Source: Malania oleifera
Lineage: Eukaryota > Streptophyta > Magnoliopsida > Santalales > Ximeniaceae
Reading direction: 5' to 3'
NCBI RefSeq assembly: GCF_029873635.1
Contig: NC_080423.1
Coordinates: 98,514,397 to 98,578,396, forward strand
Length of the DNA stretch: 64,000 nt
Below the pieces are notes generated by a model. It saw only the letters and a program-made list of their open reading frames with translations. It made no database searches and was not told the origin of the DNA. Below, piece after piece: positions 15,039 through 37,474 of this stretch (positions are counted from its first letter, which is position 1; every line of letters starts with the position of its first letter). The position numbers were made by a program, and so were the translations under genes.

Positions 15039-16734
15039 TCAAAATGATAGTTCCTCGGGTAATTCTTGAAACTTGCCAAATAAAAAGCTCTTGATCTTTC
15101 CTTGGAGATCTCCGCCTGCAAAGACATCGTAATGTCCATAAGCGATACTGAAAAGATTGGTGCAGGTAAAAAAATTATGAAGCTACCTTTAGGTTTGAAT
15201 GGGGAAAGGTTTTGGGATAGAGTTGATTGCACCAATTTAACAAAATCATTGCCTGAAAAAAGAAAAGAAAAGAAGCAACAAAATATCACTGAACAAATGC
15301 ACAAAGATTAGGTCCATGGAAAAGGATCTCAAAAAGCAATGTAAATAGATATGGGTAAAAGGGAACAATTCTCAAAAGAAATAGCAATCTTGCTGATGTC
15401 ATAGCTCCAAAAAGGTAACTGCAATCTTTTCCTTTTTCTTGAGGAGCCCTTGCCCTTGTGCAGGGTCTATTGGGGAGGGGTTGAATCTCAACAGGACGCA
15501 AGTCACAGTAATCACTTAGTCACACATATTTGAGGCCCAACCCAATTTTTCTCATCATATAAATGTCCTCACTGTGAGCTACAAACTGAAGTCAGGAGCA
15601 ACTTGGTCTTCTTCCTATCTTTCAACGGAAGAAGCATGCAGAAAATGTTGCATCCAACAAAACTTCATTTCCTCTCTAAGAAAAATCATCTGCTCATATT
15701 ATACCAACAAGAGATGGGTACAGATCAAAGCAGACTATAAATGGGGTCTATAGATAATGTGATATGCAAGGATCAAAAGAGCAGTAAGTGCATAATTTTA
15801 ACCATTTCAAAGATTTTATTTCCTTTTCAGAGGAATCGTGCATTTGATTAGGACAAGCCCTATCATATGAACAACAATCTTTCATGTTTCAGGTTTTCCC
15901 ATTTGTTTAGTTCCTCACCAGTCACACGTTTTTCTGCTTCATTGACATTAACTAGGAAAGATGAGATTTGGTTGTCTTTCAACTGCGACAACAACAACAA
16001 CGAATAGGTCAATAGAATGCATCAAAAAGTGAAAGAAGCAATGAGTCCCTTATCTTCAAGTATAAAAATGCAGGCTCTACAGTAGGCTTTTGCATTACCT
16101 TGGATAGAAGAGCTTTTGCAAGCTCCAATGAGTCGATGGAAGAACCCTTACTGTATGCAGGAACAAACTTCCCATCCTGATAGCCAGCCAAAAAGTGATA
16201 AGCTGCTTGGCCAGCAGACAGCTTTGAAGCAGAAGGGACAACTCCTGAACTGCTTCAATACAGAAGAAACAATGATTACATTGGATAATTACTTGTAGGC
16301 GAGGGGGAAAAATTGCAGCATTTCATGCTGTACATGAAAACAATGATCCAAAATAATACGAAAGGAAAATAATAAAAAAGGAAGAAGGTGAAAAATAGAT
16401 GGGAAAAATGAGTAACCCAAGCAAGAAAAAAACAAGGCAATTTCATCCCAAAGCATTTGCTTTCCATACTCATGAAGCATGGATCACCAAAAAACAATGG
16501 TACATCCGCTGGCAGACCAAGTTATACACCGCTTCCAACAGGAAAAAGTTTTAGAGCCTTTGATTAGGGCCAATATTCAATTGGGCACTCAAAATATCAA
16601 GTATCAAATGGCTAACATTGTTTGAATGCATCAAAGTTGGTCTGCAATTGAATATTTACTGGTCAATATTGGTGTGACTTAATTGGATGACACCAAGCCC
16701 AAACACCACAGATATATTCATGCATATACATGCA

Positions 16735-16776
<42 letters not shown>

Positions 16777-18647
16777 TATTGATAAATCAGCAATATATCT
16801 AGTTCAATAGGTTGCAATTTCATCAGCTCCACAGATAATGGTTGAATTGGACCCAGACAGCAGCTGTTACTAAGTGGACTGCCAATTCAGAACAATGTTT
16901 ACATGATCATGGCTTCAAACATCAATATTGTTCTTCCAAAAGTCAGAAACTAAGAAACTGAATAAAAACAGCAACAGAAGTCCATGGTACAAGGAAAACA
17001 TTGGCCAGCAAAGCCAAAATGGCTAACCATATTTCTAAGCAATTCATTATCAAAAGAATCTCTAGCAATTATCGTGTCAATTACCTATCAGAAGTTGCGA
17101 GAATAACAGCAGCTGGTAACTTGAATAAATTTGGAGATGTGGAATCCCCCGTGTGAAAAAATGGGGCGACACCTTGTGGAGTAAGAACCACTCCTGCATC
17201 TGCAGATACCAATGAATCTGAACAGCTCTGAATTATATCTTCCGGTGCAAATAAAAGAATCACAGAATCACCAGAGACGAGAAGCCTGAAATTCACAACT
17301 CCATCGTGTAAAACACAAACTTTTTATTTCAATAATTTTAGTGCTCAAAGAGCATGGAGGTTCTTACCTTGCAGATAAAGGAATCCCTCCCCGTGCAGAA
17401 ATAATAGGTTCAGACAAGGCAGCTAGTGCTTCTTTTGTTCCATTTGTATCACAGAAAGCTTTACCACATAAAATGAGTGATGAGCGCTCAATATCCACAG
17501 CAATAAATCCATTATTCCCTTGAACTTTAAGACCAATGACATCCCCAGCATTTGGACTGCATAATCAGAAGTAGCAAATAGAATAACTCAATCACGTAAA
17601 TGTTCATACAGCAGTACAGCATAGATTTGTACATAGGATCAACAAGGTCAAGCTTCCCTTCCCACCACCAATGACCAAAGCTGAGGCAAAAATAGACCAA
17701 TCTAGAATATCATATTGGACAAATTATATTATCATGAGTCCCAAACATTGTGCAAACAGCCTATCCAAGAACGACAAAGTTAGCAATCTATTAGGACTGT
17801 ATGATATTGTCCTAAATCATGTGAAATGGCAGAAAAGGATTTATGCAGTCAACCCAGAAATGGAGGTGGTGGTGGCTGTAGATGAATTGATATCCCCACA
17901 GCAGGGGTGTACTCAGTTCTTATCAGTTCGGTTTTGACTAAAACCAATAACCAAAGAGAAAAAATCGGTCTTCAAAATCTAAAACTAAACTGACCAAAGA
18001 GAAAAAATCGGTCTTCAAAATCTAAAACTAAACTGAACCGTACACCAGCGGTTTAGTGTAACCGTAAACCAAATTTTTACGGAGTGGTTCAGTTTCACTT
18101 GGTTTTTAATATAAAATTTATATTTATAAAAAAATAAAAAAGATTTGCAAGCCCAAAAAGCTCAAACCTAAATCAAGTCCTTTTGAATGTAGACAAGGCC
18201 CAAGGGTAGCCCACCCACACAACTAGAATTAAGGGCCTTACTCAATGCAATGATAGGAAGGCGAGATGGGCTTTTATATGGGAAGGGAGGGAGCTTCTAT
18301 TCTTCCTCAAACCAATGTGGGACAAAGGTTCCCACAGGCCAAGTCCCCAACCCAACTTCCACTCCACTACACTTGTCCCACATCGCCAAAATGAGAATTT
18401 TGAGTCATGCATTTTGTATAAATCCCTTTCCCACTCCTTCCTTATCCTTGAGCAAGGTCAACAAGCCAGATTTAATTAGTTAAAAAAATTAATTAATTAA
18501 ATAAAGTATTAAATGGTTTCAATTATATAATTAAAGAAATAATATATTTGAAATAATATATTTAATCGGACACATATATACAATATTAAAAATAATCATT
18601 TTAAAATTTTGTACACCCCTACCTCCCCCACTCCCCAGCCGAATATA

Positions 18648-18688
<41 letters not shown>

Positions 18689-21600
18689 AATTATATTAAT
18701 TTATATATTTATTTTTTATTTAAATCGGTTTTTTGGTTTTTTCAGTTTGGTTATGTTTTGAAACCGAAAACGTGAACCAAAAAAACCGAACCGCTTTTGA
18801 TTTCGGTCCAGTTTTCAGTTTTTCGGTAATTTATGTACACCCCAGCCCACAGGCTCCATGTAAAGTAGCTGTTAGTAAGTTTCCTCACAAATAAATTGCT
18901 GACAGGTAGTCCACAGCACGAATCCTCTGCCAAACCACGCATTTATGCAATACAATAACACAAGAAACTGTTTTAAATCTAAATATAATTTCATCTGAGT
19001 TGGCCTTCAGGACACCCACTGAACATGCTACCTTTTTTAACTGATCCTTAACATGACCCCATCAAGTTGCTCATCATGACATCCTTGTCCTCCAGAATTA
19101 CAACAGCAATGCAGGACCTAAGTACTCCCACATAATGGGATAAACTGTAACTCAAATTCAATTCAATATTCAACATTCCAAAAAAAAAAAAAAAAGGAAC
19201 TCTTACAATCACATTTGTAGGCCTAATATGCTTGCTAATCAAGAAAATAAAATTAGGAAACATAAATACTACTAGCACACCTCTTTCCTAATATATAAAC
19301 CTTATATTCTACTTGATTATTACCTAATAAACTACTAGTATAAAATGCTGCGAGAATAGGAAATTTTTAAGAAAATAATAAAATTACAGGATTGCTAAAA
19401 AAGCATTAAAATTCCCAGCGTGGTGAATTCGCATGACAGGTCATTCACATTGGATCACTTCCCCCTGGTTGGTAAAAATTTGACCTTGAATTCAAAATTT
19501 TGAAGGGGGAGAAGAACAGATGAACCAAATGCAACTGTAGTTGACCAATATAATCTGCAGGCTTTAAAAATAAATATGAAAAAAAAAAATGCGCAATCTC
19601 ATCACATCTTTATCCTTGAACTCAACAAATTTACCCACCATGCCTAATCTTTTGCTAGTTCTACCTCCTCAAATTCCTTCGTGATTTCTTTGGGCTGAGA
19701 TGTCAATTTTTGTGTCCCTTATGCTCTCATATCCTATTTCAACAAGTGATCACAACTCCGGTTTTGACTCTAGCACACTCAACATCTCCACAGGCCTCGT
19801 CTTCTCCAAAAGTTAACTCTTTTCAGTCCGCCTCATTGAGAGTTTTAGCCATATTCTATTGATTGCTAAGCATTGTAACTGCCAAGACTTTGCTCTTATG
19901 GTAGACTGCTTCATGAGGTTTTCAAGGTGTTCTCGCAAGTTGATGTGCCCTTGAAGATTTAGTCATGGAATTGTACCTGCCCCCACTCTAATTCCCATAA
20001 CTGCTGTAAGCGAACTCAACAATGGATGGTTCCCAAGGCATACTGGAAATTAACGGAACAGAGCTCTAGATTTTGCTGGGTAGCGACTATGGTAGAACCT
20101 AAGGTACCATTTGTATTCTCAATTCCTTCCTCTTCTATCATTGTATCTAAACAGGCTATTACCATTATCAGTTTACGGCTGATGTCTCCAATATCCCTGC
20201 GCGGGGCTGCAACCTCCTAGCTGTATGTTGCATAGCCTGATTTGACTGCTTTTCAAGGAAACAGATACAATATCCCCACTCCTCCTTCGTCGCCATGGTT
20301 TTCAGTTCTGTCGGATCAGTTCAGACCAGTAGGGTTTTGGTTGTCAGATTAGTTCAAAAAAGTCCAGTTCTGTCATTCTTGCTGCACCACTGGTTCAGAA
20401 ATTTATGACAAGGGTTAGATAAAAGGCAGAGACCCTCTGTTGTGTTTGTCTCCCATGAAGGCTCCAAGCCTCCTTCAAACCAAAGAAATGATGTTCCACA
20501 CTCATAATATCATGGTGACACCAGTCAAAGATGAGAATTGTCAAGGCTGCTTGGTGTGGTGATCTCCAAAGAAGATTGAAGATTTCTGTTAGAAGACCTG
20601 CGTCGGCTTTCTTCTCCAATGATGAGTAAGGGGGGGACAGGGCTAGAAGATGACGGTTGAAGAAAAGAACTGCAAGGCTGTCCAACGATTGAAAATTCAT
20701 ACTTACTCAGCTGATTGTGTAGACAAAGGGGATGGTTGATGATGAAGTCATATGGTGAGATGATGGCTACAGTGACATGAGGAAATGGCTTGTGGTGGTC
20801 GTGGTGGCACTACAGCGGTTAAAATTGATGGGGAAGATGGTGGAGTGATGAATGGTGGTGCAATGCAGTAATAGACTCTGATACCACCTAAGTCCTCACA
20901 AAGGGATAAACCCTAACAACTTAAATCCAGTTCAATGTTCAACTCTCCTTGAAAACATTGACAATCACATATTTATAGACATAATATGCTTGGGAATTGA
21001 GCATATAAAATTAGGTAACATAAATACCACTGGGATACCTTTTTCCTAATAAGCACAATATACAGCCCTAGAATTTACTACATTATACCGAATAATTTAA
21101 AAAAAAAAATTAGAGAGATCAAGTCTTTACTAGAATAATAGGTTACGGCCAATAGATATGAGATCATGGTCTGTAATGGTTTCAGATGATATTGTGAGAA
21201 GGAAAAAAGAAAAATGCAAGGGGGGACGTTGGACAAGTGGTGACACGTAGCAAAAACTGACAAAAATCACATTTTGTGGTATCAAAATTTTGGCACTTAG
21301 GAGCGTACAAAAATTACCAAAAAACCAAGTGGACCAAAACTAAACCTTTTTATATTTTGTTTCTGCAATTTTAGGTTTAAGCTTTTTTTATTTTATAAAA
21401 AAATTGGTTTTCGGTTTTGGTTTCAGTTTTACAAGAAAACCAGACCAAAAATAAATTATAATATTAGTTTATATTTTTATAGTTAAATATTTTAATACTC
21501 ATAAACCACTACTATTCCTTTTTTGCTAATTTTTTTCAATCTGTAATTTAACAATTTTATTTCATTCAAACACATAGAACAGCTTGCCTAAAAATAAACA

Positions 21601-24600
21601 AATTAAGAGAAGAGATGGGGCTTTTATACAAGACGAAAGGCTCCCTCACCTAGTTCCTGTCAAAGTTGGACAAGGAATCCTCCTCCATGCTGCATGTGCA
21701 TGCTATTGGCATGTTGCTTTGTTGCTGCTGCAGCTACTTTGCTGCAGGGTGCTGCTTCTTGCCCCACATCTAGAAACAACACGAAAGTGGAAGCCTTCTT
21801 CTATAAAGTCATGCATCACTCAATTCATTATCAAATTGCACTTTGGGCACCAGAACAGTCCCTTCTGCTGGTTTATGGGCTTTCATAGTATGCCCATTTC
21901 CAATTTACTCTTTAGTCCATTAATACTCAATGACATTCTGATAGAGAACCACAAATGGAGAACTTAAGATGCTTAAATGCAGCTATAGCATTAGAAATTA
22001 GGGTTTTTTTTTTTTTTTTTTTGTTTTATAAGTTCAGTTAATTTGGCGGTATTTTTTTTATTTTAAGTATTTTGGGGTTATTTTGTAATTGTTCGTTTGA
22101 GTTGTAATTGTAACGTTGGTGTATAGGTATTCTGTTATGTATTGTATTAGACGGTTATATCTTTGAATTCAGATTTCCAGCTGGTTTCCCTCTCTATTGT
22201 GCAGCTTCGCCCATCTTCTCTTCTTCTTCTTCTTCTTCTTCTTCTACTTCCTCTTTTCTTTTTCTTCCATCTCTTTCTTCCCTTCTCCTAGTTCTGTTTC
22301 TCTCTGTTCTATCTCTGATTTCTGTTGTCTCTAATTTCTATTCTGCCTCTTTCTATTTCTTTACCTTAATTCTCTTTCTGTTTCTTTTACTATCCTACAT
22401 CAATTTGGTATTTGATGGAGAACCACCAATGGAGAACTTTAGCTGTTTATATTGTAACTATGGCATTAAAAATTAGCTAGGGTTTTATTTTAGCCTGCAA
22501 AATTTCTGGTTATTTTAGAACTTTAGTTAATTTTGGGTTGTTTGGTGCATTTTAAGTATTTTGGAGTTTCCGTTATAGTGGTAAAGTTGGTGTATAAGTA
22601 CTCCATCCATGTATCGTATTAGACAGTTATCATATTTTGAATTCAGATTTCCAGAACCGCCTCTCTATTGTATTAGACAGCTTCTCTCTCTGTTCTGTCT
22701 CCGATTTCTGTTCTGCCTCTAACTTCTGCTCTCCCCTGCTGTTTCTCTTTCTTCTCCCTTCTCTCTCTCTCTTTCTCTTTCTATTTTTCTCCCTTAATTC
22801 TCTTTCTTTATCTTTCTTTTACTGTCCTACGTCACATTCTGCTGTAAAAATTTTGTTATTGATGTGCTAGGAAAAAATTCTTAAACCCAATAGAAAACCG
22901 AACCAGAGGATAAAACCAACGGTTTGCTTTCTGTTGAATTGGGTTTTCAGTCCACTCTTGGTTTGTGATTTTGAAATACAAAGTGTTCAGTTTGGTTATC
23001 AGTTTTGGATAAAACTGAACCAAAAAAAAAAAACCATTACACCCCTATTGCATGTTGCAGCAATGCATTTTTCTTCGGACATTGAAAACCAAACCAAACG
23101 TATTTCCTCCAAGCTTTTTGAATTTAGGCAACACAACGAGAAACAGGCAACTGCATGGACACAAACCAGGCACTAATAAAATTGCAAAATTGCCCAAACT
23201 GTTAAAAATTCCAAATGTGATGTGTCTTTAGACAAACTAAAAGCTCACGTTGCATCATAATGAATTTCCTCACACAACTTGCAAAGGGCTAAAGGTTACC
23301 CTTTCCCTCTTGCAGAAGCCAAACTGGTGTACAGAACAAGTCACTAGATTTCAATATTCCTAAGTTAAAGAAACTTTTTAATGCATACTAAACAAGCATC
23401 ACTCACACAAGATCAAGCTTAACTGTTAACCAACTTGCTCAATCCAGCCTCAATTTATTAATTCATCCCAAAATTTGTATGCAAACAAAACAAGGTTAAA
23501 TAATCTTCAATTTTTTTTAAAATCCTTAATACTTTTCTTGTTATCTCACCTTTGCAGCTTTTATTTCCCTCTATGGTAAATTTATTTTCATAAAATAAAT
23601 GAATAAACAATATGTTACTTAAATTTGTGCAGACCAAATTTACAAACTAAAATGGAGAACCTTCACATGCACAAAGAGGCACACGCAAAAAATCCTAGGT
23701 GACAAATAGCTTAATCCTAGGCTCCTAGCAGGCTAGCACATAGACTGGGTGCAAAAAAAGTACTGGCCGAGCACAAATTAAACATATTTTAAAATTTTAA
23801 CAATTAGTGCTTTAAAAACTAAAGAAATGACACCATAAGATTCCACAATACCTTATAGATGCAGCAACATAAACAGTTAGAGGACAAGAATCATGGGATA
23901 CTGCACGAGTTGGAGTTCTCCAGAGAAAATTTGATAATGATAATACAGCAGAGGGACAATCACTTATCACACGAACTTTCGCATCACATTTTGGGAATGA
24001 ACCAATAGCCCCATCATGGACAAAAATATTTGAGACAGTTGATATGTGACTTGTGACCTGAAAAAATGCGGTTGGACAAAGGCACAAATCATGCATGCAT
24101 TAAACATAAAACGCCATAAGCATCATAATATGTGCAAAACACAGTAAGTTCAACGTAAGTAAGATGGAAGTACATTCATGCCTCTATATCAATTTTAAAA
24201 AATAGAATGAAAATAATATCTATATGAATATATCATAAAAATCATTAGTACTGTGAGTGAAAGCAGTAGCGTGTTAAACACACACATGCACACATCAAAA
24301 TACTATCCACAAAGGGAACAGTACAACAACAAAAAGCCAAGCCTTAAGTCCCACTAGGTGGGGTCAGCTACATGAATCCATTTCTACCAATTTACACGAT
24401 TGTAGGCAATCTTCTCCAACAATATGAGGGCTCTTAAATCCTTTCTCGCTATCTCATTCGAAGTTACTTTAAGTCTACCCCTACTCATTCTACTGCCACT
24501 ACCAGTAACTAGCTCACTCCTCAGCGGTTGTCACTGGGTCTAAGCTCACAGCACACAAATTTGTCACTACGTGGCACCAAGTGACACACTTGGTTAAGCC

Positions 24601-27600
24601 AACGTCAGACACATAACTATTGGTTAAATCCTGCAAGTGTATAGCAATTCAAATAAACATTCACAAGGCAACAAGCATTACAAGAGCAACAACTCCCAAC
24701 TTTTCTTTTATTCAAAGACAAGGAAATACACTCTAACATGTGCAGGAAACACACAACTCGTCCATCCCCATGCCCCCCTGCAACCCACAAGTTAAATTTA
24801 TACACAATTCACACCCCCAACTACCTAGGGTCTGCAGTTGACAACCCCAACTACCTAGGCTGTGCTGGACGTAACCAACAATTGCCAACAAAGCTAAAAC
24901 AAGTCATGCTTAAAAGTAAATGGCTAAAAACATGCCTAGACGTCCACCCACAAATTTACCCACTAACCATGCCTGTCTGCCAGCCATGCAAGGATAAACT
25001 GCCAAGTAACTGCCTAATTCTGATCAACATGTCAACATTGAGAGCAATTGGCATTGACATTATACACCCTATGAGTCAACACTTGTGTCTAGCATCATTC
25101 CCCTTAACCATGACTTGTCCACATCCCAACTACAGCAAATGTCACTGAGGCACTTGATGTAACCAAGTTAACCATCTGACCCTTTTAACTGAAACCAACC
25201 ATCGTAAGCAATCTTGTCAAGGACCATGACTCCAACCATGTCCATTCCTAACCAAGTCAAGTAGGCAACTTCGCTACTATGTGCTCCCCCTACAACAACA
25301 TAGTTTCACCAACCAACGATTATCAAGACAACCCATGACAGACCATCTCAAGCTATTGCCTTGGCACATGGTTTGCCCACGCCGTGTGCCTCGACAATGT
25401 CAAGCTACTCAAGGGTCTGACAGCGGTGCACTATTTAGCCTACATTCACACGCTCAAACCATCTAAGCCAACCCTCCCTTATCTTATCTAGCTTACTACA
25501 AATATATTCATTCTTTAATTTATCTTTGAACGTTATACAATAATACCATTTATCCACCTTATCATTCTCATTTTGGCAACTTTTGCTTTTTAGATATATT
25601 ATTTCTTGGTTGCTCAACATTCTGATCTAGATAGCATACCATATAGTTGTCTCAATAAAATTTTCTTTTAATTTTAAAGGTATTCAATGATTACACAACA
25701 TGTTAAAGCACTTTTCCATTTTAACTATCCTAATTTAACTTTAAGCATAACATCTTCTTCAATATCTCCTTCAGCTTGCATAATAAATCCAAGGTATCGA
25801 AGTCTAGTACTAGGAGTGCTACTAATTTCTCGACCATCAAGTTTAACTTTTTCTTTTGTATTCCACCTACCATTACTACATTTCATATCTTCTATCTTAT
25901 TTCTCTTTAACCTAAAACCTCTAGTTTCTAAAGCTTTTCTCCATAATTCCAACTTAGATTCTACTCCGCCCTAGTTTTATCAATTAAGACAATATCATTT
26001 GCAAACAACATATACTTTGGAACCCCATTTTTGGATACTCCTAGTAAGTTCATCCATCACTAGTGCAAAAATATAGGGATTCAAATACCTTGATTAAAAA
26101 TTCCTTAAACTCTCCACAAGTAGTCCTAATGCTAGTCGTTACTCTATCGTACATATCCTCAATGACATCAACCCGCAAACTAAATTCCCCTTTTTTCCCC
26201 TAAAATACAACATAGAACTTTCCCAGATACTCCGGTCATAGAGGCTTAAGTCAATAAAAACCATATTCAAGCCCCTCTTCTTTTCCCTAAACTTGTCCAC
26301 TGTTCTTAAATGAAATATATAGCTTCTGTAGTCAATCTCCAGGCATAAAACAAAACTGATTTTCTAAAAACCCTCATTTCTAACCCTAGTTTTTGTTCAA
26401 TTACCCTTTCCTATAGCTTCAATGTATGATTAATAAACATAATTACACAATAATTATTACAATTTTGAATATCACCTTTATTTTTATAGGTATAAAAGTG
26501 CTTTTCCTCCATTCTTCTAGCATTTTCTTAGTTTTTATAATTGTGTTAGATGTTAATAAAATAATTTTTTTATCACCTAGGCATTTCCAAACTTCAATTG
26601 AGATGTCATCTGGTCCTACACCTTTTCCATTTTTCATCTTTTTTAATGCAAGATTAACTTCATTAACTCCAATTTTGCAAATAAATCTCAAATTTTAAAC
26701 TCTTTCCTCATTTTTCAATTTTAAGTATTTTGCTTGGTTTTCATTAACTAGCTTATTAAAGCAACTTTGCTATCTTTCTTTTATGTATTATTCTTTAACC
26801 AAGATATATCATCCACATTTTTTATACATTTTACATTACCTAAATCCTACACTCTTTCTTTCTCTAGCTCTAGCAAGTCTCTTTCTCCTTCTTCTATATC
26901 TCTTCTAGCATATAAACTATTATATGCTCTATGTTTAGCTTCAACGACTTTTTTTTGCATCTTTTCTTGCATCTTTATACTTTTCAAAGTTTTCCATGTA
27001 TTTACACTTTTTCCATGTTTTATGATTTTTTTTTTTTTGTCTTCACAGATTTTTCGACTTTTTGCTTCCACCACCACCATCTTTACAAGCCAAGAATCTT
27101 CCTCTAGATTCACCTAAGATCTCTTTTGTTATCTTTTTAATAGAGTTAGCTACCCTACTCCAAAGAGGGCCTCCATCTACACTATCCCCATCATCCAACT
27201 ACCCTCTTTGACCATTTTATCTTTAAATTTTATTATTTTTCTCCCTTTAATATCCACCACCTAGTTCTCTTGCATTGATTTATGCTACCCATTCTCTTCC
27301 ATTTTTTAGTACATGTATCTAACACTAGAACTCTATGTTGTGTAGTTCAATTTTCACCAATCCTTGCATGAAAAATGATCTACCCCTCATAGTTTAGGAG
27401 AAAAATATCTATTTGACTTTTGTTCTGTCCACTCTCGGAAGTTGTCAAGTGTTCTACTCTCTTCTTAAAGCATGTATTCATTATAATAAGGTCATATGAC
27501 TTAACAAGTCTAAGATCATATCAACAAACTCATTTTTATCTCCATATCCATGTCCACCATGTACCCTCTCATTACCTTTATTTTCCTTTCCAATGTGCCC

Positions 27601-30600
27601 ATTCAAATCAGCTCCTATGAATATTTTTCTCAGTCTTTGATGTCCCTTTTATAATACCATCCATATCTTTCCAAAATTGTCTTCTAAGTTTTTCTGCTAA
27701 GCCTATTTTAGGAGCACAAGCACTCATAACATTTATTATCTTTCGACCTAAGATCATCTTGATTTTTATGATTCTATCCCTTACTCTTTTACCATCTTTA
27801 ACGCCATCTTTCAGGTTTTTATCTACAATGACTCCTACCCTACTTTTACATTTTTCTTTTCCAATGTACCAAAGTTTAAATGCTGATTTTTCACTTTATC
27901 TAGCTTGATCCCCTACCCACTCGGTTTCTTGAAGGCAAAATATGTTAATTTTTCTCCTATTCACTATGTTAACTATCTCCATGCTTTGACCCATAAGTGT
28001 CCCCATTTTCCATGTTGATATCCAACCCTAGTCTCCCAAACTAACTTCTTTAACTGCTAATGTTCAAAATGATACCCAGAACCTTCGCACATCTGACACC
28101 GTAGCTGGGCGCCGACACAGCACGTTGCTTTGGTCAAAGATTTAGCCCACCCTTTCCCATTTTTTTTCTTGACTAAGTGGTATAAGAGCACGAAAAGAAT
28201 AGTATCAACCTAAATTATGAAGACAAAAGCGTCACATAATGTCCATATTTCCTTTACCTAACATGAACCCTAGAAGTAAAATTGTAGAATCTTTCGTTGC
28301 GGTAAACAGGTAAAGCCACTGTTTTGGAGAGGAGTAAGACCAAAGAAAGAAATGAGAAAGTTGCATAGGATTAATTTTTGAATTTTATTTCAAATAACTG
28401 CTAAATTAAGCATTCTCTAGGAAAAGAAAGCTACTAAAACTCAGGGGAGTTTTGGAATCAGGTCATAAAAAGGATCAATTAACATCATAAACATATTCAG
28501 GACATGTTCATATTCTTTATGGATAAACTGCTTAGAGATCAAGTCTCCAGAGAGAGAAGAGAGACACATGGATATTTTTTTCTTGAAAATCACATTGAAC
28601 TGTAAACCCCCTACAAGTAAGCCTGGGTCTTCAATATACACGGACATCTAAACTGCCCTACACTCCTTGCCCGCCACTCTCACAGATACATATACAGAAA
28701 CATAATAAACTGTCTCTGAGCACTATTAACTTTTTTCAAATTTACAAAACTAATATAGGAAGTGTAATAATCATTAAAATATAATATAATAATTAACTTA
28801 CATTAAAGTAGAGACAAACCAATAAACAAGAAATATTTTCGTAATTATGTCAGAGTTCATATTAAAATATTGACTGCTGAAGCTACTTCCAGTTGGAAAG
28901 CTATCCATGGAGTTTATAACTAAATACGCCATGCACCAACAAATGGATAAAATTATTCTTCACATTATTACAGAATAAATGAAATTATTCAGTATTAGTG
29001 TGTGTGCACATGCATATATATATAAGCACAAAACTGCTACACCTACAATATATCTGCACAATTCGGAGGGAGAAAACAAAGAAAACAAAACAGGCAAATA
29101 TCCCAAAGAAAAAGGTTAAAGTATGCCTGTTTCAAAAGTTTACTATATTGGGCCTTGGAGATTTCTGCTGCACCTCCAGGTACATTTCCTCTAACATGAA
29201 CCGATAGTCCTGATAAAGCGTCTACAAAAATCCAAAATTTATTTAAACTATTATTTAAAAAGGGGCAAGCAAAGAAAGAAAAAACTGATAATTGTCTAAA
29301 TAAACATGTTGACATATTGAAGTTATCACCTGCAATGGTTGCACCTTTCTGCTGTAGTTCAGAGGATTTCAAGTTTCGAAAAGCTTTATCTTTGACAATT
29401 ACACCTTTTCCAGCCAAAGCCCAATTGAGACCATAGGAAACTCCAGGACCCTCCCTACAAAGAGAAAGAAATGAGTAACAGACAAGAAAAATAAGCCATA
29501 TGTTGTTGAGCTACTCTTATAATATGCAAGTAACTTCAAACATGGAAATGGAAGAACGAGGGAACTAAAATAAATTCATACACCAAATGTCTGACCAATG
29601 CTTCTAAACAAGGGACTACTCAAGTACCTTGGAAGTCTGAGATATAGTAAATTAGAAAGTCGGGAAACTTTCATGTTAATTTTGCAAGCCACCATTCATT
29701 GTATAGCTAAAAGATAAACAAAGGATCTGAGGTTAGCCGTAGCAACTCTTGAAGATAATAAAAGAGAAGGATGGCTAAGATGGTAGGACTACTTGAAACA
29801 TCGACCAAATATTGCTCCATGAGGGGCGACTTGGTTATTGTTAGCAGGAGTTGGCGGGGGTAAACCTAGGATAACTGAGACTGAGATAGTGAGAAAGGGT
29901 TTGAGAGCACTTCAACTTTTCGGGATATATCACCCTACATCATACTGAATTGCTAAAAGTAACATAAGCCCACCCAGTGGGACATAAGGCTTCATCGTCA
30001 TAGTCGGAATCATGACTAGTTGCTGTTTTTGTTTTACTTCCCCCTTGCAGGCTCAAGGGGCCACTCAGGCCAAACCAATATTACATGGACAAACCAATAT
30101 TACGTGAGTTCAAGGAGGAGAATTGAACAGTTCACCAATATTACATCTTGATAGTCAGGGAATGGACAGATCCTACATCTTAACACATGCTCACACCTGA
30201 TGCATGTACCCTTTGCAACAAAACATAAAACTATAGTCCCAAACTAATCCTAGATGACAATCATGTACAGAGTACATCGCATTTCTAGAACACATAAGCA
30301 TGCACATGCACACAAACACAACTTGCTTAAATATAATTAGTGCTCCTAAATATAAGAGAGCAAAATTTAACGGAGGAAAAACTAATACAAAATTCACATG
30401 ATAGCTTTGCAATAAAATCCCCATTAAAATTTTTGAACATAACCAAATGAAGGGTCACCTGGGGAACAAAACTGTTTCAGCTTCCTCCTCGACCATTGGG
30501 GCTGAAACTGCATTCTGTAGAGTTTCAAAACACACAAAAAGTTAGGTCATATGTACTTATTCCAAAATAATTAGTTTTTTATGGATAATAACAACACATA

Positions 30601-33600
30601 ATGCCCATCAATCAAACACATGCAATCATGGTTTTAAATAAAGGCCGCGACCGTTACGTAATGGTTTTTTGGGTTACCGATACCGTTACACAACGCAAAA
30701 TCAGTGGGAAGAAAAATCACGGTCGTAGTGGCCATTATAGACCGCGACCGTTACGTAAAGGCCGTTACAGCCGTTACGTAACCGCTATAGGACCGTTACA
30801 CCAAAAAAAAAAATTTTATTTTTTACTTTTTCTTCTCACTTTTTCTCTCTCTTTCATATGTCATTCTCAATATACCAAGTGGCAAGAGGGAGAAAGATTA
30901 TAATGAGGATGACAATGATACAAAATTTACTATTTTTGTAAATACTCACAATAGATGCATTAATTAACAATTTCAAAAGACTAACTTGTTAGGAAAAAAT
31001 TTTTTTTTTTTTTGATAATATTAGTAATGTGATATTTATGTTCTAAATCTTTCAACTTCAACCTTCTTTATTTTCTAGCTATTTTATATTTATATTATTC
31101 ATATGACTTATATGTCTAATAGATTAATGGAGTGTATAATGTATTTTGTTTTCGTAATTAATTTAGCACACATAAGAATTTATCACAAATAAGAACAATG
31201 AGAAGTATAAATACACACACACGTAATTTTCTATCAATGGTGGTTTAAAACAAATGTAAACTTGTTGCCCTTACTCCTTACCAAATAACTTAGTTACTTA
31301 AACTAAAAGATCCGAAATACACAAACTCTTTCTAAGAATGGCTAAAAGCTTAAAACATGCAAGTACGCTAATATGCACAAGGTTGTGCGTGTTTCAAAAA
31401 AATTCACGGTCGTTACACCCACTTCTCGTTATGTAACATCCGCTACTCCCGCTTCCCTTTACACCTCTTACCGTTATGTTACGCTACCCGCTACCGCGAT
31501 TTAAAACCATGCATGCAATACAACATTAAATTGAAATATGACATTAGCAAGAACTAGATTGATGTCTAATACTCCATCTATTTGTGACAACAATAAGAAT
31601 TATGCAACTAAGAAAAGGAAACAAGGTCAATCACATTAAGAAATCTTTTTTACAAGAAATAATATTAGGATCATTAATAAAAAATTCTTGATGTTCTGTA
31701 AGAGATCCAAAATGGCCAAAATCCCAACATTGCACTTTCTTACAAGTAAAAAAATTTGTCCATGCAAATTTGATTCTCCACAGTTTCATCTAAAGCTTGC
31801 GAGTTTGAATATAAGAATGGCGAAAGGACCTATTAGATTACCAAGTGGTAATCTAACATGGTACCAGAGGCATGGCTGCAAGGTGGTCTCGGGTTCTAGT
31901 CTTGGTGCCCACATTTAATATGGTACCAGATCCATGGCTGCAAGATGGTCTTGGGTTCTAGTCTTGATGCCTACATTTAATATAAGTTTGTTCGAAAATT
32001 GTCATCTACCCAATATATGGGCATTATTCATTGTTTGTTTATTTCTTCACGTGACCATGTTGCACACATAGGGGAGTGTTAAAGCTTGATATACATCGTT
32101 GGCCCACAACCTAACAACTTAATATACATTTAGGCGAAGTGATAATACAACAACACCAACAACAAAAACCAAGCCTTAAGCCCCACTAGGTGGGGTCGGC
32201 TACATGAATCCTTTTTCCGCCAATTTATGCAATCATAGACAAATTCTTTCAACAAATTCAAGACTATTAAATATTTACTCACTATCTCATTCCAAGTTAT
32301 TTTAGGTCTACCACTACCCCTTCTACTGCCACTCACAGTAACTAACTCATTTTTCCTCACTAGCACACTATATGGCCAATGTTGCAAGTGCCTAAACCAT
32401 CTGAGTCGTCCCTCCCTTATCTTCTACAAGAGCTACACCTAACTTACCACGAATATGTTCATTTCTTAATTTATCCTTCAATGTTATACCACTCATCCAT
32501 CTAAGTATTCTCATATCGGCAACTTTTACTTTTTGGATATGTTGTTTCTTAGTCGCCCAACATTCTAATTCATATAGCATAGCTGGTCTTATAACCGTTC
32601 TATAAAACTTCCCTTTTAACTAAAAGGGTATTCTACAATCACAAAGCACACTTGGAGCATTTCTCCATTTTACCGAGCCTGCTTTAACTCTATGCATTAC
32701 ATCCTCTTCAATTTCTCCTTCGGCTTGCATAATAGATCCAAGGTATCGAAATCTATTTATTTCTTCATCATCAAGTTTAACTTTGTCTCCAATATTCCTC
32801 CTACTATTACTGAAATTACATTTCATATATTATGTCTGATTTCTACTTATCCTAAAGCCTCTAGATTCTAAATTTTCTCTCTGTAATTCTAACTTAGCCT
32901 CTACTTCACCCCTAGTTTTATAAATGAATATAATATCATCTCCAAACAACATACACCATGAAACCTCATTTTGGATACTCCTTGTTAGTTGATCCATCAA
33001 TAAAGCAAAAAGCAGATCCTTGGTGTACACCTATTGTGATTGGAAATTATCGAGTCTCTCCACCTATAGTCCTTACACTAGACATTACTTCATCGTACAT
33101 ATCTTTAATGACATCAATATACCTACAACATGCACCTTTATTTTCTAAAACTCACCATAGTACTTCCCTAGGTATCCTATCATATGCTTTCTCTAAGTCA
33201 ATAAATACCATATGCAAGTCCTTCTTTTCCCTAAACTTTTTCATTGATCTTAAAATATATATAGCTTCCGTAGTAGATCTCCCAGGCATATAACCAAATT
33301 GATTTTCTGAGACCCACGTTTCTAACCTTAATCTTTATTCAACTCATTGTAGTCAAAAGCATGCCCCTAGCCCCACTACACCTCGCGCCTCATTCCTTTT
33401 GAGACGAGGCAACCTTCAAGAGGCGCAGGTAGGCGCATTGAGGTACAGGTAGGCGCATTGATGCTCCAAGCACAATGAGCCACGCCTTGAAATTTTTTAG
33501 CCTGTTAAGAAATAAAACGTAGCTAGAACCAGCCCTAGCCCTCTTGCAGCAATCCAGACTTCGACTCAGACCAGCCCTAGCCCTGCATCTTCAAGCCTTC

Positions 33601-36600
33601 AACTCATCTTCAACCCTTTAAACCAGCACAAAACCTAGAAGGAGCCCTTCGTCTTCGACCCTTCTTCTTCTTCTGCTGCTGCTGCTGCCTGCTGCTTCTT
33701 CTTATAATATTTACTTGCATTAAGCCACTAAGTTAATATTATACAATATGTAATTAATTATGTAGTTTAATGCAAGTTTATAATTAATATATAACATTTT
33801 TTACTGAATTTAGCAGCTGTTTGTAATTTTTTTGGAAATGCAGTATACAAATTATACAATATCATTCTCAATTTTTATACATTTTACATTACCTAAGTCC
33901 TTAATCTTTCTTTCTCTAGCTCTAGAAGTTTAAATATACCTATTTCACCGCCTTTTGTAGCTAATCTATCATACAAATTATTAAATGATCTATGCTTAGC
34001 TTCACTAACGGCTTTTTATGCATCTTTTTTTTCTCGCCTCTTTATATTTTTCAAAGTTATCCATGTTTCAACATTTTTGCCATGCTTTATACCAAATTAT
34101 TTTTGTATTTACAACTTTTTGGATATCTTGATCCCACCACCCCACCAACTTTCATTGCTATTTGAGAATCTTCCTCTTGATTCACCTAAAATCTCTTTTG
34201 CTATCTTTTTAATAGAGCTAACTATCCTACTCCAAAGAGTATTTATATCTATACCATCCTCTATAGTTCAATCACCATCTTTGATCATTTTATCTTTAAA
34301 AATTTTATATTTTCTCCTTTTAGGTTTCACCACCTAGTTCTCTTACATTGGTTTATTTTAACCTTCCTTTTCCATTTTTTAATACATACATCTAACACTA
34401 AAATTCTATTTTGTGTGGTCAAGCTTTCACCTAGGATAACTTCATAATTCTTACATGATAAACGATCTACCCTTCTAGTTAAGAAAAAATCTATTTTGAC
34501 TTTTATTTTGTCCACTTTTAAAGGTTATCAAGTGTTCTTCTCTTTTCTTATTCACTGTAATAAAAACATATGACATAGTGAAGTCTAATGTCATTTCCCC
34601 AGACTCATTTTTGTCTCCATATCCATATCCTCCAAGTATCCTTTCATAAGCTTTATTATCCCTTCCAATGTGTCCTTTCATATCTGCTCTTATGAATATT
34701 TTCTCAATCCCTGATATGCCTTGTATAATATTATCCATATCTTCCCAAAATTGTCTCTTAAGATTTTCTGCTAAGCCTACTTGAAGAGCATAAACACTAA
34801 TGATATTTATTATCTCTTGACCTAAGACCATCTTGATGTTTATAATTCTATCCCCTACTCTATTTACATCAACAACGCTATCTTTAAAGTTTTTGCCTTC
34901 AATAATTCCTATCGCATTCTTATATTTTTCTTTTCTAGTGTACCAAATTCTAATTTATCAATTTCTCTAACTTTCTCCCCTACTCACTTAATTTCTTGAA
35001 GGCAAATTGTATTAATTTTTCTTCTAATCATAGTGTCCACAATTTCCATGCTTTTACCTGTAAGTGTCCCTATATTCCAAGTTGCTAATTTAATCCTAAT
35101 TTCCTGATCTAACTTCTTTACCAACCCACGTCCAGAATGATGCGAGAACTCTCACATATTTGACAGTGTACCCAGGCGCCGACACAGTGTGTGGCTTCAG
35201 GGCTACGACCTAACCCACCCTTGCCCACTTTTCGCTACACTCAGGTGGTATAAGTGCAGTGCGTCACTCGTAGGGGACACCCCAAAGAATATTCGGTAAG
35301 GATTCATCATAGTGATCTAAAAAATTTTAGGTTGGTTGTCAGCTACCTAACGCAACCCTCCTCCTCTACCCAAGCTTGAAATCGGTTGTGTGTGAAAAGA
35401 TTACATTGCAGGCAGAGTTAGGCGAAGTGATAATCTGACATGATATTAGAGCTAGTCAGCAGGAGATCCTAGATTCTAATCTTGTTGCCGGCATTTCTTG
35501 TGTGGTGGTTAAAAATTATCTATGCCCCCAATTGGAGTTATTCATTGTTTGTTTATCCTGATGAATAACTCCAATAAATAACTCCAATTAGGAGCATAGA
35601 TAATTTTAAACCACCACACAGGAAAAATTGGCAACAAAATTAGAACCTAGGACCTCCTTCTGACTAACTTTAATACCATGTTAGATTATCACTTAGCCTA
35701 ACTCCGTCTGTGATGCACTTCATATCCTAATTTTTTCACACACAGTCAGTCCCAAGCCTGGGTAAAGAAGGAGGGTTGCATTAGGTAGGTGACATTCAAA
35801 GTAAAATTTGTCAGATCATTATGATATGAACTCCTACTGAATATTTGTTGGAGCGTCCCCTACGAGCCATGAGTTGCACCTATACCACCCAAATGTAGCG
35901 AAAAGTGGGTGAGAGTGAGCTAGGTCATTGCCCCAAAGCGATGCACCGTGTCAACACTTGGGTACAGTGTCAAATATGTGAGAGTTCCCACATCATTCTA
36001 GATGTGGGCAAATAAAGAAATTAGTTCAGAAGACTAGGATTAGAATAGCAACTCATAATATAAGGAAACTTACGAGTAAAAACATGAAAATTGTGAACAC
36101 TGATTAAAAGAAAAATTAATATAATATGCCTTCAAGAAACTAAGTGGGTGGGGAAGAAAACTAGAGGAATTGATAAATCAAGACAATTAAAGCTTGATAT
36201 ACATTGTTAGCCCACAATCTAACAGCTTAATCTTTTAGGTAAAGTGGTAATCTAACAAAACTCAATGGCTCAAATGAAGAAAACCTAAAATATAAGAAAA
36301 AAAAAAGAAGATTGTTTCCTTCCACAATTAAATTAATCAATAACTATTAGGACTTAGGAAGCACTGAATTTTAACCAAGTGACCTACTATGTGAATCAAT
36401 AAATCAAGTCTTCACTTGTCCGCTGTGGTGCTGCCATCAAAGAAGAAAGACAAACTCCATTGAAGAATAAGAAAATTATGAATTCGTCCCATACATTAGA
36501 AACTCAAAATGAAAAATAAAGCAGCCTTTCTTTCCTTCTGCAAAACTATAGCATCCTCACCTTCCTAAGGATTCAAGCTTCTCATAGACGAGGAAATCTA

Positions 36601-37298
36601 GAAATCAACTAAAAATTCAATCCACAACATTTTTTTTCCAAAGTAGGGGTCCCACACTCATTTTCTTGCCCAACCACTGGGTCTAGTTTGCATTCCAATA
36701 TATTCTTTGACTAGAGGCAGAAAGTATCCAGAAACCATGCCTTCATAATACAATGTTCAGAACAAAGATTAAGTCCAAAATCTCTCATTCAACAATACAT
36801 TTCATGAAACTCTCGAGCCTCTAAAACCTCCAAAACCTTTTCAAACGAACTCATCAGAATAGACATGCACACGCATTACACCCAACAAATCACCTAGTCA
36901 AATGCGAAAGCAACACCTCCAAATCCCCGAACCCATTTACCCAACAAACCCACTTCACCCAACCTCCTCTCCCACACCGTAATTATAAACCCTACAAGAC
37001 AGAACAATCAACTTTAACCAAAATTTATGTTACGGGATTTTTTATCTAAAGTTGGTACATTCACGTCAACAACGTCTGCGTACCATTCCCATTAACGACT
37101 TCAAAACACAGTGAGCTCAATTTACAAAATTTTAAAAAGTAATCGGAACCAACCCCAGAATCACAAATTACTCAGATCGTTAGCTTTTATCTAAAATTAA
37201 ACAGGCAGTATGTGAAACCAAACAGCAACAGCGGTTAGAAATGAAACCAAAATCTCAATAATTTAATGTATCTCTCGATCAGCCATTTGAAAGTTATT

Positions 37299-37352
<54 letters not shown>

Positions 37353-37474
37353 ACGCGTCGTGAAGAGAGGGAGAAGGGTAGAGAGGAAGCGAGTGCAGGA
37401 ATGGGGGAAGTGGAGGATCTGGAAGATAGAGCGAAGGAGGCATCAGCGAACCGCTTCAGCAGGAGGTTCCTCAT
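15039..37474 (-). CDS. PEPCK-like protein without catalytic motifs, probably mitochondrial
   Basis: Eleven exons splice to 449 aa: 37474-37355, 30514-30459, 29454-29330, 29221-29127, 24057-23852, 17556-17368, 17285-17085, 16249-16099, 15982-15919, 15252-15187 and 15115-15039. Lengths sum to 1350 nt and every junction keeps frame. The start ATG sits in ACCACCATG; an Arg/Ser/Ala-rich N-terminus with few acids (residues 1-40, one exon) looks like a mitochondrial presequence. The rest follows ATP-type phosphoenolpyruvate carboxykinase. KVRVISDCPSAV matches the VR.IT region. DIERSSLILCGKAFCD sits where the enzyme has NLTERMQLIGGTWYGGE. KLSAGQAAYHFLAGYQ (340-355) matches RLT..Q..YHFLSGYTAK. The P-loop GLSGTGKT, the GGEMKKG lysines and the GDDEH motif are absent, and it is shorter than usual (540 bacterial, about 670 plant). 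It is probably a pseudoenzyme or has a new role. Intron 4 has a GC donor. Confidence 0.8.
16739..16772. repeat. (TA)n microsatellite
   Basis: A run of about 16 TA units lies in the intron between exons 7 and 8 of the PEPCK-like gene. A similar run lies at about 18648-18683 inside the hAT-like element. Confidence 0.9.
17902..18844. mobile_element. Non-autonomous hAT-like element
   Basis: The left end is CAGGGGTGTAC and the right end is GTACACCCCA, forming a short terminal inverted repeat. Flanks CCCCACAG (17894-17901) and GCCCACAG (18845-18852) form an 8 bp target duplication with one mismatch, as expected for hAT. The subterminal regions repeat AACCGAAC-like motifs in both orientations. No transposase was seen. 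It lies in intron 5 of the PEPCK-like gene. Confidence 0.65.
19116..21056 (-). mobile_element. Small LTR-type element, minus strand
   Basis: Two direct repeats of about 180 bp (19116-19297 and 20886-21056) enclose about 1.6 kb. Next to the right repeat, on the minus strand, stands TGGTATCAGAG, the standard primer-binding site for initiator Met tRNA. This makes the right copy the 5' LTR of a minus-strand element. The internal part has no recognisable polyprotein. LTR ends are not cleanly TG...CA and no target duplication was found, so the limits are approximate. It is an old, non-autonomous fossil. Confidence 0.5.
21298..23047. mobile_element. Second hAT-like element, interrupted
   Basis: The left end TAGGAGCGTAC and the right end TTACACCCCTA are imperfect inverted repeats like those of the element at 17902-18844. 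Both also carry CCAAAAC- and GGTTTTCGG-type subterminal motifs and share an internal GATGGGCTTTTATA-like stretch. No clear target duplication was found. An LTR pair (21939-22834) has inserted inside it. Confidence 0.5.
21939..22834 (+). mobile_element. LTR pair with almost no internal region
   Basis: LTR-like unit 1 (21939-22402) runs TGATAGAGAACC...CTACATCA and unit 2 (22413-22834) runs TGATGGAGAACC...CTACGTCA. They match along their length apart from substitutions and CT-rich length changes. Only about 10 bp lie between them, including TTGGTAT, which looks like the start of a primer-binding site. CATTC precedes unit 1 (21934-21938) and follows unit 2 (22835-22839), a 5 bp target duplication. 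It is a fossil with no coding capacity. Confidence 0.75.
24324..28195 (-). mobile_element. RTE-type LINE, interrupted by a solo LTR
   Basis: The minus strand shows an endonuclease region at about 27550-28020, including IFCLQETEW. Reverse transcriptase pieces lie at about 25700-26850 (YLGFIMQAEGDIEEDV near 25770), followed by the C-terminal WFERV region. The 3' end is the standard plant RTE tail: GACCCCACCTAGTGGGACTTAAGGCTT followed by TTGTTG repeats. Several stops and frame changes disrupt it. An 884 bp solo LTR interrupts it at 24539-25422. It fills most of intron 4 of the PEPCK-like gene. Confidence 0.85.
24539..25422. repeat. Solo LTR inside the RTE LINE
   Basis: The segment starts TGTCACTGGGTC and ends GGGTCTGACA, so the ends are TGTCA...TGACA. 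GCGGT lies on both sides (24534-24538 and 25423-25427). Removing it restores continuity with the related LINE at 32147-35417. No internal retrotransposon region exists, as expected for a solo LTR. The orientation is unclear. Confidence 0.65.
29735..29990 (+). mobile_element. RTE LINE 3' fragment, plus strand
   Basis: The translated end GKPRITETEIVRKGLRALQL matches the C-terminus common in plant RTE elements. It is followed by a weakened 3' tail (CCCACCCAGTGGGACATAAGGCTT). It is truncated at its 5' side. Confidence 0.65.
30628..31510. mobile_element. TIR element with GC-rich CCGTTACG motifs
   Basis: Ends ATGGTTTTAAAT and ATTTAAAACCAT are perfect 12 bp inverted repeats. The subterminal regions carry many copies of CCGTTACG, GTTACGTAA and similar motifs in both orientations. 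ATGCAAT occurs close to both ends (30620-30626 and 31513-31519) and may be a target duplication. No transposase was seen. It lies in intron 1 of the PEPCK-like gene. Confidence 0.6.
31841..32146 (+). mobile_element. TRIM element, left part, split by a LINE
   Basis: An LTR end (CCAAGTGGTAATCTAACA) is followed at once by a primer-binding site (TGGTACCAGAG, 31859). Then come a short internal part, a polypurine tract (GGGGAG) and a second LTR starting TGTTAAAG at 32077. The RTE LINE at 32147-35417 interrupts this second LTR, whose last bases (CTGACA) are at 35435-35440. A further primer-binding site and internal stretch follow, so this was a tandem LTR-internal-LTR-internal array. A 62 bp internal segment is tandemly duplicated (31859-31920 and 31921-31982). 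Confidence 0.7.
32147..35417 (-). mobile_element. RTE-type LINE with 17 bp target duplication
   Basis: This is a near full-length minus-strand copy of about 3.3 kb. Both flanks carry TTAGGCGAAGTGATAAT (32130-32146 and 35418-35434), which lies inside a TRIM LTR. The coding order is endonuclease (about 34470-35080), reverse transcriptase (about 32620-33340, with FRYLGSIMQAEGEIEEDVM) and C-terminal MLYELECWATKKQH with LRWMSGI (about 32390-32580). The 3' end is the plant RTE tail with TTG repeats. At 33345-33868 about 420 bp of LINE sequence is replaced by about 520 bp of unrelated DNA. Several stops and frame changes are present. Confidence 0.85.
33345..33868. other. Unrelated DNA replacing part of the RTE LINE
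   Basis: LINE homology with 24324-28195 stops at 33345 and resumes at 33868. The segment includes a repeated AGGTAGGCGCATTGA motif (33426-33463), CCAGCCCTAGCCCT twice and a CTTCTTCTGCTGCTG run. No gene or terminal repeat was recognised. Confidence 0.5.
34955..36175. repeat. Large inverted repeat of a LINE-TRIM junction
   Basis: The left arm is about 34955-35553 and the right arm about 35561-36175, with only a few bases between. Both arms contain, in mirror order, TRIM internal sequence, a TRIM LTR end and the 5' part of an RTE LINE as far as the LQET(E/K)WVG region. The arms have diverged by scattered substitutions. Because both contain the same insertion junction, this is an inverted duplication and not two separate insertions. 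Confidence 0.75.
36186..36257 (+). repeat. TRIM solo LTR
   Basis: The stretch TTAAAGCTTGATATACATTG...GTGGTAATCTAACA matches the 76 bp TRIM LTR at 32077-32146. No primer-binding site follows, so it is probably solo. It abuts the right arm of the inverted repeat. Confidence 0.6.
37302..37349. repeat. (GA)n microsatellite beside exon 1 donor
   Basis: About 24 GA units read as CT on the coding strand. They begin five bases into intron 1 of the PEPCK-like gene, right after its donor. Confidence 0.9.

What the first reader, a model, noticed from the sequence alone, without database searches (positions are those of the whole stretch)
15039..37474. A PEPCK-fold plant protein that has lost its catalytic motifs
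Seen: the spliced 449 aa product can be aligned by eye with ATP-type PEP carboxykinase over most of its length. Matching points are the VRVISD region, an ERSSLILCGKAF segment opposite the enzyme's ERMQLIGGTWYGG, the SVILLF strand that should lead into the P-loop, and QAAYHFLAGYQ opposite YHFLSGYTAK. Known: the enzyme needs the P-loop GLSGTGKT, the GGEMKKG lysines, a catalytic His and GDDEH. At those places this protein has APEDIIQSC and unrelated residues. Inference: it is a conserved, probably mitochondrial, pseudoenzyme of unknown role. Intact frames and splice sites across 22 kb full of insertions argue for selection.
Basis: partly seen in the sequence, partly recalled or inferred. Interest (0 to 1): 0.78.

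Follow-up and report, generated by a model that had tools for sequence, protein, structure and literature searches.

The report
Plant PEPCK-like protein without catalytic site
A plant gene encodes a protein derived from the sugar-making enzyme PEP carboxykinase whose ATP-binding and catalytic parts are gone, so it probably works by binding other proteins; one stretch resembles a dead relative built into the respiratory complex I of Euglena.

Summary
An 11-exon minus-strand gene (37474-15039) gives an open 449 aa product (exon 2 uncertain). It is a remote homologue of ATP-type PEP carboxykinase: Pfam PF01293 E=1.1e-15, above cut-off; hhalign 97% over 265 columns; 54.6 bits against at most 2.5 in 1000 shuffles. 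No alignment keeps P-loop, GDDEH, catalytic lysine pair or His. Two PEPCK genes with these motifs lie elsewhere in the genome, so this is an extra, almost certainly non-catalytic protein.

New lead: its exon-5 region finds, as best PDB chain, NDUEG2, a PEPCK-like subunit of Euglena complex I judged unlikely to be functional (E=0.056). They share H-D-G-A-x-G-S; its H and A occur in 0 of 72 bacterial PEPCKs there, and a tree pairs them 96/92. Against: AU tests allow separate origins, two bacterial PEPCKs score higher, masking the motif removes the signal, and no plant complex I chain in the PDB matched. Mitochondrial location, conservation in other plants, selection and fold: not shown.

The parts
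37355..37474 (-). exon 1: start codon, MRNLLLKRFADASFALSSRS..., possible targeting peptide (40 aa)
30459..30514 (-). exon 2 (19 aa, NAVSAPMVEEEAETVLFPR), least certain exon
   Evidence: one of 17 phase-compatible candidates, two of which have this length; model
29330..29454 (-). exon 3, EGPGVSYGLNWALAGKGVIVKD...
29127..29221 (-). exon 4; followed by a GC-AG intron
23852..24057 (-). exon 5: NIFVHDGAIGS and KVRVISD, PEPCK N-domain stretch; best PDB match NDUEG2
17368..17556 (-). exon 6: DIERSSLILCGKAF, opposite the PEPCK segment before EMKK; the lysine pair is not kept
17085..17285 (-). exon 7: SVILLF strand, then AP-EDII; in one alignment the 50 residues from P-loop through GDDEH are missing here
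   Evidence: hhalign aligns the middle differently
16099..16249 (-). exon 8: SSGVVPSASKLSAGQAAYHFLAGYQ, strongest PEPCK match
15919..15982 (-). exon 9: SFLVNVNEAEKRVT, opposite PEPCK LVNTGW...GKRI
15187..15252 (-). exon 10
15039..15115 (-). exon 11 with stop codon

Best explanation
The gene makes a non-catalytic protein descended from ATP-type PEP carboxykinase. Shown: homology over N- and C-terminal parts, open frames, absence of the nucleotide-binding motifs and replacement of catalytic residues. Inferred: the remaining fold has been kept as a protein-binding scaffold, and it is imported into mitochondria. Most likely mode of action (inference by analogy with Euglena NDUEG2, where the C-terminal strand of NDUFS4 joins the central sheet of the subunit's Rossmann-fold domain): a partner protein docks on the sheet of the PEPCK N-domain. 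In plants the partner would be transient or loosely bound, since no plant complex I chain in the PDB matched. Probability that it has no PEPCK activity: about 0.95. Probability of the scaffold mode as stated: about 0.45. That the partner is complex I or its assembly: about 0.2.
For: Pfam PEPCK_ATP 57.7 bits, cut-off 26.5; profile of 72 bacterial PEPCKs 54.6 bits vs best of 1000 shuffles 2.5; hhalign 97.4%, 265 columns. Missing motifs and replaced residues in an alignment with 8 canonical enzymes; no GK followed by S or T anywhere in the 449 aa. Two PEPCK genes whose exons carry GEMKKG, GLSG/TGKT and GDDEH in the same genome. N-region: NDUEG2 best PDB hit; plant-NDUEG2 score 70 against a maximum of 48 in 2000 shuffles; H and A of H-D-G-A-x-G-S in 0 of 72 and S in 1 of 72 canonical enzymes at those columns; 8 of 29 doubly non-canonical columns identical; clade 96/92, support reached in 0 of 14 simulated independent-origin sets. 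He et al. 2024 (PMC10884005, passages and section 7 read): NDUEG2 lacks two ATP binding sites, has an incomplete C-terminal domain, is unlikely to be functional and is linked through NDUFS4.
Against: No orthologue from another plant was examined, so conservation is unproven. Fold not predicted. Bacterial L049 and L032 score 77 against the plant N-region, more than NDUEG2 (70). With the 11-residue motif masked the plant-NDUEG2 score falls to 28, inside the shuffled range (mean 21.3, maximum 37 of 1000). E=0.056 is not significant on its own. AU test does not reject separate origins (p 0.49). No plant complex I chain in the PDB matched.
Confidence: 0.45

Rival explanations
1. A plant-lineage PEPCK pseudoenzyme of separate origin: it lost its site on its own and has nothing to do with complex I; the H-D-G-A-x-G-S resemblance is chance on two fast-evolving sequences.
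For: Four separate-origin trees are only 4.5 to 12.7 log units worse and none is rejected at p-AU 0.05 (the worst, plant protein with plant PEPCK, is excluded by two of the weaker criteria there); long branches (2.4 and 2.5 changes per column); simulated separate origins paired the two in 3 of 14 sets, none with starred support; masking the motif removes the signal; plant complex I structures exist (8BPX, 8E73, cited) but no plant complex I chain matched.
Against: NDUEG2 tops the PDB for the exon-5 region while true PEPCKs do not appear at E<=10; the best tree pairs the two (96/92).
Confidence: 0.4
2. A regulator of the true PEPCK or of gluconeogenesis: the dead copy pairs with, or competes with, active PEPCK in the cytosol.
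For: Two PEPCK genes with the catalytic motifs coexist; pseudoenzymes that regulate their active relatives are a known theme (own knowledge).
Against: Very low similarity to the plant PEPCKs; sister relation to them alone is marginally rejected in one test (p-AU 0.042) and not in another (0.083); the N-terminus could be a targeting peptide (inconclusive).
Confidence: 0.08
3. A decaying gene: a PEPCK copy on its way to a pseudogene, intact by chance.
For: Introns 1, 4 and 5 are long (5.1 to 6.8 kb) and intron 1 holds reverse-transcriptase remains; what looks like a decayed PEPCK copy exists at C1:32.15M (L030).
Against: 449 open codons over 11 exons with usable splice sites and codon-position composition, at a divergence so large (end branch about 5 changes per column over 161 columns) that an unselected gene should hold stops.
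Confidence: 0.04
4. An enzyme with another, ATP-independent activity on oxaloacetate or PEP.
For: C-terminal strands and the KLSAGQAAYHFLAGY region are kept.
Against: Tyr, Lys, His and Arg positions that bind metal and substrate in PEPCK are replaced (roles of these residues recalled).
Confidence: 0.03

Closest known systems
ATP-type PEP carboxykinase (PF01293; E. coli PckA 1aq2, T. cruzi 1ii2; the plant's own PEPCKs at C1:4.93M and C8:67.18M)
   Same: Collinear homology of N-domain and of the C-domain strands
   Different: No P-loop, no GDDEH; catalytic residues replaced; 390 aa in exons 3-11 against about 530-550 for most of the bacterial enzymes; NCBIfam family cut-offs missed by far (48.6 vs 590 bits for pckA)
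NDUEG2 = NDUTB12/NDTB12 = DIPPA_18104, PEPCK-like subunit of euglenozoan complex I (PMC10884005; NDUEG2, NDUTB12 and DIPPA_18104 equated in PMC12699882 Table 1; that NDTB12 is the same name is my reading)
   Same: PEPCK-related, incomplete C-domain without ATP sites (paper's words for NDUEG2); NIF-x-HDGA-x-GS motif, 15 of 38 residues identical in the stretch compared
   Different: Similarity outside this stretch is weak; the euglenozoan protein is a stable complex I subunit, the plant one was found in no plant complex I chain of the PDB

Membership tests
ATP-type PEPCK (as a sequence family) | Match to the Pfam PEPCK_ATP profile above its cut-off | tested here: met
   57.7 bits, cut-off 26.5
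ATP-type PEPCK (as an enzyme) | P-loop GxSGTGKT | tested here: not met
   Missing after SVILLF; opposite SARGGIPLSA in hhalign; no GK followed by S or T in the protein, only GGDLQGKI near the C-terminus
ATP-type PEPCK (as an enzyme) | EMKK lysine pair and preceding Tyr | tested here: not met
   CGKAFCDTNGTKEA; Tyr is Phe; one Lys sits at or next to the first Lys position depending on the alignment
ATP-type PEPCK (as an enzyme) | His of MHCSAN, Asp of GDDEH, Arg of GRSPKD | tested here: not met
   PLSARL; missing; GATIAD
ATP-type PEPCK (as an enzyme) | NCBIfam equivalog score | tested here: not met
   48.6 bits vs cut-off 590.05 for pckA
PEPCK fold | Superposition of a model on PEPCK | not tested
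   A spliced product falls outside what structure prediction says it accepts, so none was sent
NDUEG2/NDUTB12 subunit family | Specific sequence relationship | tested here: inconclusive
   E=0.056, tree 96/92, AU does not exclude alternatives, L049 and L032 score higher
NDUEG2/NDUTB12 subunit family | Stable subunit of complex I | tested here: not met
   The 390 aa query finds no plant complex I chain in the PDB copy at E<=10; the only plant hits named in the list are two weak plastid-ribosome chains (5mmj_v 0.21, 5x8p_v 0.99). I did not check by search that plant complex I is in the copy. Transient association not testable
Mitochondrial protein | N-terminal presequence | tested here: inconclusive
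   6 R/K, 1 D/E, 12 S/T in 40 residues; best 18-residue moment there 0.36 against a 95% level of 0.41 in the rest

The most novel reading that the evidence does not exclude
Plants and Euglenozoa share one ancient, dead PEPCK-derived mitochondrial protein. In Euglenozoa it became a fixed complex I subunit (NDUEG2/NDUTB12); in plants it acts on complex I transiently, for example by holding NDUFS4 or the N module during assembly. A subunit listed as euglenozoan-specific would then be an old eukaryotic factor.
Probability: 0.2. Interest if true: 0.75.

Novelty: new variant of a known kind. Interest (0 to 1): 0.5.

Why it matters
Dead relatives of metabolic enzymes often turn out to be scaffolds or regulators (own knowledge). 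None of the listings of my ten literature searches showed a plant PEPCK pseudoenzyme. If the link to NDUEG2 holds, a subunit listed as special to euglenozoan complex I would have a plant counterpart, which can be tested by complexome profiling and a mutant in Arabidopsis.

Tried and rejected
Rejected: (1) recent paralogue of the plant PEPCK: divergence far too large; sister relation to plant PEPCK alone disfavoured only marginally (p-AU 0.042, 0.083). (2) The copy on C13:56.93M (L025) as a guide to selection: a small, recent copy of exon 11, intron 10 and flanks (74 of 77 exon-11 bases identical), cut in exon 10; uninformative. My notebook entry calls it a possible genome-duplication relic; one search replaced that. 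(3) DegS (best E=0.14) and plastid-ribosome hits as relatives: weak, no support. (4) NDUEG2 E=2.8e-13 is circular (its fragment was in the profile) and is not used. (5) Relatives in viral contigs: 19 stretches matched a peptide pattern, none encodes a relative. (6) PHROGs: none at E<=0.001. (7) A tree over 368 columns: the plant protein's end branch is 10, saturated and partly misaligned, so its place there is not used.

Literature: ten searches. Searches looked for a plant or any PEPCK pseudoenzyme or paralogue, for NDUEG2/NDUTB12 and complex I. The listings showed no paper on a plant PEPCK pseudoenzyme; I did not open the unrelated papers, and the library holds only open-licence papers. I saw passages of PMC10884005, PMC12854811, PMC12699882, PMC8312217, PMC8124061 and PMC6018760 and section 7 of PMC10884005. 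The papers disagree on one point: PMC12854811 calls Tetrahymena NDUTT2 the homologue of NDUEG2, PMC10884005 of NDUEG1; I followed the latter.
Full report
Gene. The window is part of a 1.49 Gb genome in 510 contigs (C7:98514397-98578396); that it is a plant is inferred from gene content, no tool names it. On the minus strand, 11 exons from 37474 to 15039 join to 1350 nt and 449 codons without a stop. Nine introns are GT-AG and intron 4 is GC-AG. GC at codon positions 1-3 is 0.53, 0.46 and 0.31. Exon 2 is not certain: 17 candidates of the right phase passed my filter in intron 1, two with the 56 bases that give 449 aa; I kept 30514-30459 by eye and because a peptide pattern recalled from memory hit it. 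A search of the own genome with the 390 aa of exons 3-11 finds 10 matches (a lower bound by the tool's account): 9 are this gene and one is a copy of the last exon on C13. That copy is 74 of 77 bases identical in exon 11, includes intron 10 and breaks off in exon 10, so it is a small recent duplication.

Homology. Pfam PEPCK_ATP is the only Pfam family found, 57.7 bits with cut-off 26.5. Seven NCBIfam models match at E<=10, six of them PEPCK models (best 6.6e-17), all far below their cut-offs. Of the 80 bacterial PEPCK loci kept (the best of 585 found), all 80 gave a frame with GTGKT; I used the 72 of 450-700 aa (2 shorter and 6 longer dropped). Their profile scores the 390 aa at 54.6 bits in two collinear parts, 61-177 and 248-296, while the best of 1000 shuffles has 2.5 bits. 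hhalign gives 97.4% and 265 aligned columns. Single-sequence search of the PDB finds PEPCKs weakly (best 1ii2, E=0.0014).

What is lost. In an alignment with 8 canonical enzymes GDSVILLF aligns with the GDVALFF strand, and the next 50 residues of the enzyme, from the P-loop through GDDEH to CYAK and a little beyond, are absent, with a further gap of 12 after two residues (count). GRSPKD is opposite GATIAD, the Tyr before AGEMKK is Phe, EMKK is opposite TKEA (in a local alignment one Lys falls on the first Lys position), MHCSAN is PLSARL. The middle is alignment-dependent: hhalign and the local alignment with L032 put SARGGIPLSA opposite the P-loop stretch instead of a gap. In neither is the P-loop kept; the protein has no GK followed by S or T, and its only GxxxxGK is GGDLQGKI at 425. 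Which residues bind what in PEPCK is recalled knowledge. Kept are KVRVISD, ERSSLILCG, the VILATSD strand, KLSAGQAAYHFLAGY and FLVNVN...KRVT. The genome has two PEPCK genes (L028, L029) whose exons, read by eye, carry these motifs, with an intron between GLSG and TGKT; I did not build full gene models. A third place, L030, gave one family match; the rest of it, read in three frames of one strand, looks like a PEPCK copy broken by stops. So PEPCK activity need not depend on this gene.

Lead to complex I. With the exon-5 region as query (80 aa), the best PDB chain is NDUEG2 of Euglena complex I, E=0.056, and no PEPCK appears at E<=10. He et al. [quoted passage not shown] It equals T. brucei NDUTB12 (PMC12699882 Table 1); the Euglena protein listed as NDTB12 had no recognised domain in an earlier study (PMC6018760 Table 1). 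Both proteins read NIF-x-HDGA-x-GS. At these columns H occurs in 0, A in 0 and S in 1 of 72 canonical enzymes. Plant region against NDUEG2 stretch scores 70; 2000 shuffles reach at most 48. Of 29 columns where both depart from the canonical state (under 5% of up to 75 rows: the 72, two plant PEPCKs and T. cruzi), 8 are identical (chance p 0.0016 if random identity is 8%, 0.059 if 15%; the stretch was chosen by a search, so these are optimistic). A tree of 43 rows (39 of the 72 bacterial enzymes, two plant PEPCKs, the plant protein, NDUEG2) over 109 columns joins them with 96/92.

Against the lead. AU tests do not reject four separate-origin trees (p 0.49, 0.49, 0.083, 0.22). Pairwise, two bacterial enzymes score 77 against the plant region and NDUEG2 70 (median of 73 canonical rows 45); NDUEG2's best bacterial match is 73, the plant protein 70. 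Masking the motif removes the signal (28 against a shuffled mean of 21.3 and maximum of 37). Plant complex I structures exist (8BPX, 8E73, cited), yet no plant complex I chain came up, so the plant protein is probably not a stable subunit there; I did not check by a search that those entries are in the PDB copy.

Relation to plant PEPCK. Over 161 well-aligned columns the plant protein has an end branch of 5.0 and no supported place; joining it with the plant PEPCKs alone is marginally rejected (p-AU 0.042), with their wider 17-row clade not (0.40). The protein is old and fast-evolving rather than a recent paralogue (inference from the branch length).

Conclusion. A catalytically dead PEPCK-derived protein is very likely; that it is a mitochondrial binding scaffold is inference; that it shares ancestry and work with the complex I subunit NDUEG2 is a testable lead at about 0.2.

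Noticed in passing
window 41406-62161, minus strand (extent judged by eye): Upstream neighbour on the same strand: exon frames with the Utp13-specific domain (PF08625 at 41591-42046 and 43396-43653) and WD40 repeats (57096-57377), probably a ribosome-assembly gene.
   Followed up: partly
window 5905-9598, plus strand: Ty3/gypsy-type retrotransposon pol region (protease, RT, RNase H in 6420-8000; integrase-like frames at 8486-9598 and the element type judged by eye).
   Followed up: no
window 32130-34954 and 25725-27895, minus strand: LINE-like reverse-transcriptase remains inside introns 1 and 4 (RVT_1 match at 33152-33334, none at 34475-34954; the rest judged by eye).
   Followed up: partly
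window 29126-24058 and 29329-29222: Intron 4 has a GC-AG border (donor CAG|GCATAC); intron 3 is 108 bases and open in frame, so retention would not stop translation.
   Followed up: partly
L030 (C1:32150001-32159000): Apparent decayed copy of a true PEPCK gene: pieces of PEPCK broken by stops in the three frames printed.
   Followed up: partly
L025 1055-1677 (C13:56.93M): Recent small copy of this gene's last exon, last intron and downstream sequence.
   Followed up: yes
plant PEPCKs L028, L029: The two PEPCKs with catalytic motifs group with a Gammaproteobacteria MAG (L033, 95/86) inside a 17-row clade of mostly Planctomycetota and Rhodothermota. The bacterial rows were picked by similarity to the plant enzyme, so this is only a hint at its origin.
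   Followed up: no
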